Shown: positions 61,004 to 64,000 of the stretch, in pieces
How positions within the stretch are numbered: the first letter of the stretch is position 1
Layout: every line of letters begins with the position of its first letter
Source: a bacterium
Lineage (GTDB): Bacteria; NPL-UPA2; JAUVJM01
Length of the DNA stretch: 64,000 nt
NCBI GenBank assembly: GCA_030606215.1
Contig: JAUWGW010000002.1
Location: 61,325-125,324, forward strand
Direction of reading: 5' to 3'
The notes under the pieces: model-generated
Told to the model about the DNA's origin: nothing
The model's input: the letters and a program-made list of their open reading frames with translations, nothing else
Databases searched by the model: none
Position numbers and translations under genes: made by a program

Positions 61004-62620
61004 TCAATCCTCTCTTATAACACAATCAATTTCGAAAACTACTATTTCTCTCCTGGTGGTTTGCCTCTGCTTGATGCTGCCTAATTTAGCCTTCTTGATA
61101 AGTTTTGAACTTTCCAGCTTCCCTAAAAACTGTGTTACTCCAACATTTGAAAGCGCTCTTCCTCTTATTTTGAGATTGTCCTCTTCATTAAACCTGAGTT
61201 CTGTAATCCAGGCGTCTTCCGGGATTAGATTCCTGAGTTCCTGAAGTACTTTTAGACATGGAGAACGCTGCCTGTCAATAAGTTCTGTTAGGGCAGTTGT
61301 TCTCTTGGCTTTCTGCACGATGGGTCTTGAATTTAAAAGCTGTGTTCTCTTATTCTGTAATTGTTTTCTCAAACAAGTCTCCGTTCCCAAAAGTGCACTG
61401 TAGATGAAAACCAATCCCAGAACAGTTATAGCGAAAGTGCCTTTTATGTGAAATCTTAACTTCTTCTTAGCTTCAATCCTGGGAGAGAGGAGATTTATTC
61501 CCCCAGTCTTACTGAAAGCCGCTCCTGCTGCGGTAATAAATTGTGGATCCAGTTGTTTAATGGTTTTCACCGGCAACTGCATTTTCTCTCCTAAATAACC
61601 ATCCAGCCCTGTGAGTTTACCAGCTCCACCACTCATCAATATCCTATTCACATACCCTCCACCTGCTGTAGTGAAATAGTTCAGAGAGCGTTCCAATTCC
61701 CGTTGGAGGTGTTCAAGGACAGGTCTGATCATAGGAAATTCAGTTGCTCCTGGTGAAAATAAATCTTTCTCCTTCTTAAAACGTTCTGCTTCCTCAGTGG
61801 ACAGGGACAAATTGTCTGCAAGAGCTTTTGTGAGATTATTCCCTCCAATCTGCACCTGGCGTGCAAAAAGAAGAGATTTCCCTCTTACAATTGCAATATT
61901 TGTCTCCTTTGCCCCTATATCAACAAGTGCAGTTGTATCATCACTATACTCAGTCTCCAACAGGCAGTTGAGGAGTGAAAATGGCACTACGTCAATCTTT
62001 AAAGGTTGGATGCCGCTGTACCGAAGGCAGGAAAGTAATCTCAAGAGATATTCTCTTTCCATGCCGGCTATTAGCAGCTCTTTTTTATTCACACCTCTCT
62101 CAGTAGTTTCTCTCAAGATAACAAAATCCATAGCTGCATCGTTTACATCAATTGGAAGGAATCTTTTCATCTCCAATCTGATTGTTTTCTTTAATTCTTC
62201 TTCCCCCATCTGCGGCAGTTTAATCTGGCGGAGGAATATAGAAGAACCGGAGATAGTGCAATTAGCTTTTCTTACCCTTATTTTATGCTTATTCAGAATT
62301 TTTCGTATTGCGCCGGCGATAGCTCTGAACCGCCTATCTTCAGAAAGACCGGGAGTCAATTCAGTCATCGCAGTATTCAAAACGCTGCCTCTTGAAAACC
62401 AGACTACTTTTATAGAATTTTCTCCAAGGTCTATCCCGATAGCTTTTTTCGCTTTTTTGTATTCAATGTGAACTGATGTTTTAATTGATGCTGTTTTAGT
62501 AGAGGTCCTTTTAAGAAGAGAGGGGACGTCTTCTTCTTTCTTCCTTAAGTGTTTTTCGGGCATCTCCCCAAGTATGGAAGAAACGTCCTTACTGAGGCCT
62601 GACTTCTTTCTCACGGGCAA
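61004..62620 (-). CDS. PilM-PilN fusion protein
   Basis: PilM ATPase part (AIGIDLGENSIKVV...LLNCLLETEYSDDTTALVDIGAKETNIAIVRG...) continuing into a TM + PilN-like domain (LRFHIKGTFAITVLGLVFIYSAL...PEDAWITELRF). Confidence 0.85.
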   Translation of the reverse strand: MPVRKKSGLSKDVSSILGEMPEKHLRKKEEDVPSLLKRTSTKTASIKTSVHIEYKKAKKAIGIDLGENSIKVVWFSRGSVLNTAMTELTPGLSEDRRFRAIAGAIRKILNKHKIRVRKANCTISGSSIFLRQIKLPQMGEEELKKTIRLEMKRFLPIDVNDAAMDFVILRETTERGVNKKELLIAGMEREYLLRLLSCLRYSGIQPLKIDVVPFSLLNCLLETEYSDDTTALVDIGAKETNIAIVRGKSLLFARQVQIGGNNLTKALADNLSLSTEEAERFKKEKDLFSPGATEFPMIRPVLEHLQRELERSLNYFTTAGGGYVNRILMSGGAGKLTGLDGYLGEKMQLPVKTIKQLDPQFITAAGAAFSKTGGINLLSPRIEAKKKLRFHIKGTFAITVLGLVFIYSALLGTETCLRKQLQNKRTQLLNSRPIVQKAKRTTALTELIDRQRSPCLKVLQELRNLIPEDAWITELRFNEEDNLKIRGRALSNVGVTQFLGKLESSKLIKKAKLGSIKQRQTTRREIVVFEIDCVIRED

Positions 62621-62966
62621 TTACCTCTTCAGTTAGACTTTGATAATCTCCGGAGCCGATAGCCCTGGCATCGTAGAGAATTATAGGTTTCCCGGCACTT
62701 GGAGCTTCAGCTAATTTTATATTATTATTTATGACTGTATCAAACACTTTATCACGAAAGTGAGCTCTTATACCATTTAGAACATCTTTACAGAGATTTG
62801 TTCTTCTGTCAAAAAGCGTTGGGAGGATTCCAAGAATTGTCAGCTTGTAGTTAAGTCTTTTTTTTATTATATCTATGGTTTTAAGCAATTGTTTCATTCC
62901 CTCAAGAGGAAAATACTGCGTATGCACCGGTATAAGCAGCTCATCAGCCGCTGTCAAAGCATTTAT
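62589..62966 (-). pseudogene. ParA/Soj-type ATPase, C-terminal half only
   Basis: NALTAADELLIPVHTQYFPLEGMKQLLKTIDIIKKRLNYKLTILGILPTLFDRRTN; in-frame TAG immediately upstream; Walker A missing. Confidence 0.8.
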
Positions 62967-62973
62967 CTATGTC

Positions 62974-62993
62974 GGTGTTGCTATTGCAACACC
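62974..62993. repeat. Perfect hairpin GGTGTTGC-TATT-GCAACACC
   Basis: 8-bp arms at the parA/IS boundary. Confidence 0.8.
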
Positions 62994-63210
62994 ATTTGTA
63001 ATAGGAGAATGAATTGAACTTATTACATTTTAATAACCTTTCTTTTCTGGTAGATGTTCCTTATAGGTTGTCTTCATCTATTCGCGGTCTAATGCCGCCT
63101 GAGAACGAGTGCACGGCGGCCGGGCTTTATTCACATTACCGCGGTCTGAGGCATTTTCGCCTGCTGCCGCAAAACGAATTCAAAGTCACCGGCCCACCGT
63201 TTTTACCTAC
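62978..63210 (-). ncRNA. Structured repeat copy A (candidate IS110-family end/bridge-RNA-like element; strand uncertain)
   Basis: Aligns to 63260-63486; stem 63114-63128/63182-63199. Confidence 0.45.
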
Positions 63211-63259
63211 CAGAAACCTCGCTGAGGTATGTATGAGACCTATGGCAGATATACCTGCA

Positions 63260-63486
63260 GTTGCCATTATAGTACCATATGCAATGGGAGAATCAAACAA
63301 ATTTTCCTCCCATCTTAACTATCTCTCTGCCACAGTACACAACCCTCATAAGCTACCTTCATCTATTTGCAATTCGATGCTATTTGATAATGAGTGCATG
63401 GTGCCCGGGTTTTCTTCACGCTACCGTGGTCTTGACTACTTGCCGCAAAAAGAACCCAAAATCACCGGAGCACCATTCTTACTTAC
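63260..63486 (-). ncRNA. Structured repeat copy B, directly downstream of IS110 transposase (candidate bridge-RNA-like element; strand uncertain)
   Basis: Stem 63399-63413/63458-63475 is conserved with copy A through compensatory changes. Confidence 0.5.
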
Positions 63487-63490
63487 AAGG

Positions 63491-64000
63491 TTAATGAGCT
63501 GCTTCAGCCAGAGATTCAGCATGTCTATAAGATTTACTGCAAATAGGGTTATTCGTTTCCTTATTCCAGTTAGACTTAGTTCTATGCATAGCCCAAAGCC
63601 ATATAAGGAGTTTTCTTGCCAGAGCAGTAGCAGCTTTTTTCTTTCCTGCTCTTTTGGATATTTTAAGATGAACCTTCCTGCAGTAGGGATTTGTTCTAAA
63701 GGCAACCCAAGAAGCTTGTTGGAGCACCCATCTGATATTAGGAGGTCCTGCCTTAGAAATATGTCCATGATGGACCGTATCTGCAGACTGATATATTCTT
63801 GGAGCAAGACCGGCATAGGAAGCAAGTTGTTCAGGTTCATTGAATCTATCAAGGCCACCTGTTTCAGTAAGGACAGTGGCAGCAGTGATGAGACCGACTC
63901 CTGGAGCAGTCATAAGTCTTTCGATATCCTCATGAATCTCTGGGAGAGATTCAATCTCAAGATGAAGTTCTCTTCCAACTTTCTGGAGTTGCCTTTCAAG
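63491..64000 (-). mobile_element. IS110-family transposase (Transposase_20/IS116-110-902 C-terminal domain), truncated by window edge
   Basis: LERQLQKVGRELHLEIESLPEIHEDIERLMTAPGVGLITAATVLTETGGLDRFNEPEQLASYAGLAPRIYQSADTVHHGHISKAGPPNIRWVLQQASW; frame open to window end. Confidence 0.92.

What the first reader, a model, noticed from the sequence alone, without database searches (positions are those of the whole stretch)
62978..63486. Two tandem diverged copies of a structured element downstream of an IS110 transposase, with compensatory base changes: bridge-RNA candidate
Copies A (62978-63210) and B (63260-63486) align over ~230 nt. Each folds a 14-pair stem with the same bulge and 1x3 internal loop: A 63114-63128/63182-63199, B 63399-63413/63458-63475. 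Pairs change together: C-G to T-A (63114/63199 vs 63399/63475), G-C to C-G (63119/63194 vs 63404/63470), C-G to T-A (63125/63185 vs 63410/63461); the C·A mismatch at 63117/63196 is T-A in B. Inner GCGG/CCGC and ATTC/GAAT-type helices enclose internal loops. IS110-family recombinases use a non-coding bridge RNA from an element end (shown for IS621), and IS1111-type members carry it downstream of the gene as here. Two tandem copies with different loop sequences would be unusual.
Basis: partly seen in the sequence, partly recalled or inferred. Interest (0 to 1): 0.8.

Follow-up and report, generated by a model that had tools for sequence, protein, structure and literature searches.

The report
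Two tandem IS1111-type bridge RNAs
Beside a jumping gene that interrupts a parA gene lie two side-by-side, diverged copies of the guide RNA that such elements use to choose where they insert; the RNA type is known, and the doubling most likely reflects the ends of two related elements lying next to each other.

Summary
In detail: two diverged copies (65% identical) lie where stated. All 27 stem pairs are kept in both, with three two-sided compensations, and the sequence is not coding. In about 17 planctomycete relatives (transposase 33-49% identical) the region downstream of the gene repeats one plan: a first stem-loop whose 5' arm is, in 7 elements, a 7-10 nt-class (9-10 nt) perfect complement of the element's own right target flank, then a second stem-loop with 'AATAG' plus 3-6 nt copying the element-end/target junction. 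A and B both carry AATAGATGAAG; a second insertion in the same genome (contig C12) ends CATAGATGAAG. Four copies of one relative show 10-11 bp sub-terminal inverted repeats, so the group is IS1111. Unusual is the tandem: none of about 15 relatives has a second RNA. B has its own end-like CATAG (63240-63244), 123 nt from its guide against 111 in A, so two neighbouring or nested element ends are likelier than one element with two guides. The contig stops inside the transposase gene, so this stays undecided.

The parts
63491..64000 (-). C-terminal 169 aa of an IS110/IS1111-family RNA-guided transposase, cut by the contig end at 64000
   Evidence: Pfam Transposase_20 E 4e-26; NCBIfam NF033542 E 4e-38, below its cutoff because the protein is truncated; contig ends here
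63357..63492 (-). Copy B bridge RNA (SL1 about 63492-63397, SL2 63393-63359)
   Evidence: homology to A, model R1 match, joint fold
63450..63457 (-). Copy B, position of the 5'-arm right-target guide (GGGTTCTT)
   Evidence: position inferred from relatives, 85-106 nt 5' of the 3' guide; match to flanks inconclusive
63357..63367 (-). Copy B 3' guide AATAGATGAAG
63240..63244 (-). CATAG, probable right-end terminus belonging to copy B (CAT = element end, AG = target core)
   Evidence: 123 nt from the B guide against 111 nt in A; the following bases GTCTCAT do not match the B guide, so weak
63217..63239 (-). Spacer between B's end-like CATAG and copy A; possibly the last codons of a second transposase gene, unproven
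   Evidence: homology to the 3' end of the transposase gene not significant, p 0.16-0.26
63072..63216 (-). Copy A bridge RNA (SL1 about 63216-63111, SL2 63108-63074)
63174..63181 (-). Copy A, position of the 5'-arm right-target guide (GAATTCGT)
   Evidence: position inferred from relatives; 6 of 8 pairs with wobble to each known right flank, background 5%, inconclusive
63072..63082 (-). Copy A 3' guide AATAGATGAAG
   Evidence: equals the C12 junction CATAGATGAAG apart from its first base
62972..62981 (-). Right copy of the expected sub-terminal inverted repeat (GCAACACCGA); the left copy lies beyond the contig end
   Evidence: by position, as in L018/L116-L118; not testable here
62967..62971 (-). 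Right end of the element at copy A: CAT (element) + AG (target core), then parA
   Evidence: RE pattern CATAG in relatives; second copy on C12 shares the end and then diverges
62589..62966 (-). C-terminal remnant of a ParA/MinD-type ATPase interrupted by the insertion
   Evidence: Pfam AAA_31 and CbiA; frame meets a stop at the junction

Best explanation
A and B are two diverged copies of an IS1111-type bridge RNA (seekRNA), transcribed from the minus strand in the non-coding right end downstream of the transposase gene. Each folds into SL1 (stem, right-target guide in the 5' arm, apical hairpin, probable left-target guide in the 3' arm) and SL2, whose 3' side holds AATAG+ATGAAG. The transposase would bind the RNA and use these segments to pair the element ends with a target whose right half begins AG-ATGAAG. 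The two copies most likely are the right ends of two related elements lying side by side or nested, the transposase gene of the outer one having been displaced or lost. Shown: RNA position, strand, shared fold, guide identity with the C12 junction, and the same plan in relatives. Inferred: transcription, binding, function of each copy, and the two-element origin.
For: Position downstream of an IS110-family transposase gene on the same strand. Compensatory changes, no codon pattern. Guide AATAGATGAAG in A and B equals the junction CATAG-ATGAAG of a second insertion in the genome. Relatives: 3' guide agrees with the own junction by at least 3 nt in 10 of 14, against 11% for swapped loci; 9-10 nt perfect complement of the own right flank in 7 distinct elements, 9 of 22 rows against 4 of 442 swapped; same SL1/SL2 fold; the R1 model finds the L006 RNA at the right place and strand, E 2e-4 to 8e-4. 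IS1111 ends in the four-copy relative. Two-element origin: B's own CATAG at the expected distance; no tandem RNA in about 15 relatives.
Against: The right-target guide of A and B matches neither the parA nor the C12 flank by more than 3-4 Watson-Crick pairs in a row, at best 6 of 8 with wobble. The bases after B's CATAG do not match B's guide. The supposed transposase remnant between B and A is not statistically supported. The left end, the N-terminal catalytic part and the other side of parA are not in the assembly.
Confidence: 0.6

Rival explanations
1. One IS1111 element carries two bridge RNAs in tandem by internal duplication: same 3' guide, different SL1 loops, so one transposase could be given two target-loop versions.
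For: Both copies lie between one transposase gene and the only well-supported right end; both keep SL1 and SL2 and the identical 11-nt guide; the contig assembles through both copies without a break.
Against: B has its own end-like CATAG at the expected distance; none of about 15 relatives has a second RNA; A and B are only 65% identical, old for an internal duplication.
Confidence: 0.25
2. A and B are a structured part of the insertion-sequence end with another job, for example a terminator or regulator of the transposase gene, not a guide RNA.
For: The right-target guide of A and B does not match the known flanks; folding energy unremarkable.
Against: The guide equals the C12 junction, and relatives with the same plan have 9-10 nt target complements.
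Confidence: 0.08
3. The similarity is that of two protein-coding repeats: an open + strand frame (63014-64000) runs through both copies.
For: Offsets of 285 and 276 nt are multiples of three and the frame is open.
Against: No codon-position bias (p = 0.38); no Pfam match of the translation; compensatory stem changes.
Confidence: 0.02

Closest known systems
seekRNA of IS1111-group elements (ISEc11, ISPa11, ISKpn4; PMC11187229)
   Same: Downstream of the transposase gene, same strand; in the relatives a top-strand match lies 5' of a bottom-strand match and the two overlap in the target; 10-11 bp sub-terminal inverted repeats in a relative.
   Different: Two copies in tandem; top-strand match not recognisable in A or B for the known flanks; RNA not shown experimentally.
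Bridge RNA of IS621 and other IS110-group elements (PMC11208160)
   Same: RNA with internal loops whose segments match the target; IS110-family transposase.
   Different: IS621 encodes it upstream of the gene; here it is downstream, as in IS1111.
TIGR-Tas guide arrays (PMC12045711)
   Same: Guide RNAs in tandem; the Tas model gives a weak, sub-cutoff hit to this transposase domain.
   Different: Those are tandem interspaced guide arrays with a Tas protein; here there are two whole bridge RNAs of about 145 nt beside a transposase gene.

Membership tests
IS110/IS1111 family element | Transposase with the IS110-family C-terminal domain (PF02371) | tested here: met
   E 4e-26; NF033542 E 4e-38 on the truncated protein
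IS110/IS1111 family element | N-terminal DEDD catalytic domain | not testable with these tools
   contig ends inside the gene; no N-terminal part elsewhere in the genome
IS1111 group | Long non-coding region downstream of the transposase gene | tested here: met
   about 520 nt between stop codon and right end, including both copies
IS1111 group | Sub-terminal inverted repeats | tested here: inconclusive
   met in the four-copy relative (AACCGGAGCC/GGCTCCGGTT); left end absent here, so not testable in the window itself
Bridge RNA / seekRNA | Conserved RNA secondary structure with covariation | tested here: met
   27 pairs kept in A and B, 3 two-sided compensations; same plan in relatives
Bridge RNA / seekRNA | 3' segment matching the element-end/target junction (bottom-strand match) | tested here: met
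   AATAGATGAAG against CATAGATGAAG on C12; the parA junction matches only in part
Bridge RNA / seekRNA | 5' segment complementary to the top strand of the target | tested here: inconclusive
   9-10 nt perfect in 7 relatives; 6 of 8 pairs with wobble in A, background 5%
Bridge RNA / seekRNA | RNA expressed and bound by the transposase | not testable with these tools
   no RNA data

The most novel reading that the evidence does not exclude
A single IS1111-type element carries two functional bridge RNAs in tandem, with one shared 3' guide and different target-binding loops, giving one transposase two target specificities.
Probability: 0.2. Interest if true: 0.65.

Novelty: new member of a known kind. 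Interest (0 to 1): 0.4.

Why it matters
It adds a bridge-RNA subgroup (relatives in planctomycetes, a copy in a little-sampled phylum) with a readable code: the AATAG guide and the 9-10 nt complement in SL1 predict the right half of the target, and near-identical elements (L016, L019, L022) with different flanks suggest natural reprogramming. If the two copies did work in one element, it would be a natural system with more than one target setting.

Tried and rejected
Coding repeat: rejected. Rfam families: no match to the copies. Close DNA relatives in plasmids, in 98 genomes and in viral contigs: none useful; two short hits in G079 and G097 are chance. Transposase-gene remnant in the spacer: not significant. 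Left end and N-terminal parts in the same genome: not found among the contig tips or by protein search. Other CATAGATGAAG sites in the genome lack the right-end context. Folding energy as evidence: uninformative. A first attempt at the SL2 comparison was misaligned by one base and was redone.

Full report
Setting. The window is the end of contig C13 (61325-125324) of a 1.52 Mb draft genome from a phylum with only nine held genomes. Position 64000 is the contig end. Many contig tips share exactly 141 nt, the signature of a k = 141 assembler broken by repeats. A 169-aa C-terminal part of an IS110-family transposase lies on the minus strand at 63491-64000. A parA-type gene is interrupted near 62967. 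Between them lie copies B (next to the transposase gene) and A (next to parA).

Observation. A and B are 65% identical over 239 aligned positions, with more transitions than transversions, 60 to 24. On the minus strand 27 pairs form in both, none broken, three with both sides changed. SL2 is also kept, with one two-sided change in its inner helix. Random placement of the nine stem differences reproduces this about once in 10,000; the structure was chosen on the same two sequences, so this overstates the strength somewhat. Substitutions show no codon pattern.

What it is. The transposase's nearest held relatives are planctomycete elements L006 (49%) and L012 (41%), then many at 33-39%. Downstream of the gene these share a plan. 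The right end is CATAG; by the published 3-bp rule for IS1111 (PMC11187229) CAT is the element's extension and AG the first target bases. A 3' guide in the RNA reads AATAG plus 3-6 nt equal to the target: L006 and L012 CTG (both inserted antisense in a prepilin gene, left flank GTGAAACCATG), L020 and L022 ATGG, L013 and L024 CAGG, and so on. Agreement is at least 3 nt in 10 of 14 elements and in 11% of swapped pairs. A second segment 85-106 nt 5' of the guide is a 9-10 nt perfect complement of the right flank in L013, L018 (with two further copies), L019, L020, L022, L024 and L110; swapped flanks reach 9 or more in 4 of 442, some of them possibly related elements. L016, L019 and L022, nearly the same element, have different flanks and correspondingly different complements (L016 with one mismatch, read by eye). 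The RNAs fold as SL1 and SL2 with the complement in the 5' arm of SL1. Four copies of the G385 element fix the ends: LE ATG-AAACCGGAGCC, RE GGCTCCGGTT-CAT-AG, an IS1111-type sub-terminal inverted repeat. This is the order reported for IS1111 seekRNAs, top-strand match 5' of bottom-strand match, overlapping in the target (PMC11187229).

Application to A and B. Both carry AATAGATGAAG. A second insertion in the genome, at the start of contig C12, shares 141 nt with A's end at 95% and continues CATAG-ATGAAG-CTTTT. The parA junction reads CATAG-ATAAATG, a partial match. The SL1 position of the target complement is GAATTCGT in A and GGGTTCTT in B; neither matches the known flanks beyond 6 of 8 with wobble. 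Some relatives (L006, L012, L029, L112) also lack a clear complement, so this is a gap, not a refutation. The R1 model built from A and B finds the L006 RNA directly upstream of its guide and nothing else significant, and no third copy in the genome.

Why two copies. B is followed at 123 nt by CATAG, as A is at 111 nt. The chance of these five bases within about 15 nt of the expected place is about 3% (my estimate). No relative shows a second RNA in its right end. This favours two related elements, one inserted in or beside the other; identical 3' guides would send both to similar places. Against: the bases after B's CATAG do not match B's guide, and the spacer is not provably a transposase remnant. 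A single element with a duplicated RNA stays possible at about 0.25.

Known or new. The element and its RNA work like IS1111 seekRNA systems (PMC11187229) and belong to the same broad family as IS621 bridge-RNA elements (PMC11208160). In the papers searched I found no description of two whole bridge RNAs in tandem downstream of one transposase gene; PMC11187229 reports 26 elements with two longer non-coding regions, which in the examples described lie one on each side of the gene.

Limits. No RNA data. The left end is missing. The left-target guide (GTGAAT/GTGAAG region) was seen by eye in L006, L012, L020 and L022 and was not tested statistically.

Noticed in passing
L016, L019, L022 (region downstream of the transposase gene): Nearly identical elements with different right flanks carry correspondingly different 9-10 nt complements in the RNA, which looks like natural reprogramming.
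   Followed up: partly
L006:1500-3060 and L012:800-2200: Two related elements are inserted antisense at the same prepilin codons (HGFTL), with RE junction CATAG-CTG.
   Followed up: partly
contig tips L044/L076/L077/L100/L102, L046/L079/L104, L056/L080/L083: Exactly 141 nt shared between tips, so several multi-copy insertion sequences break this assembly; two groups share a 24-nt end (AAAAAAAGTGGCGAAAAAGGCTTG), possibly the two ends of one element.
   Followed up: no
window 61004-62620 (-): A PilM-type pilus assembly gene lies directly downstream of the interrupted parA, in a pilus gene cluster.
   Followed up: no
window 63491-63580 (-): The transposase has a C-terminal tail of about 29 aa beyond the homology with its nearest relative L006, whose own tail is about 10 aa.
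   Followed up: no
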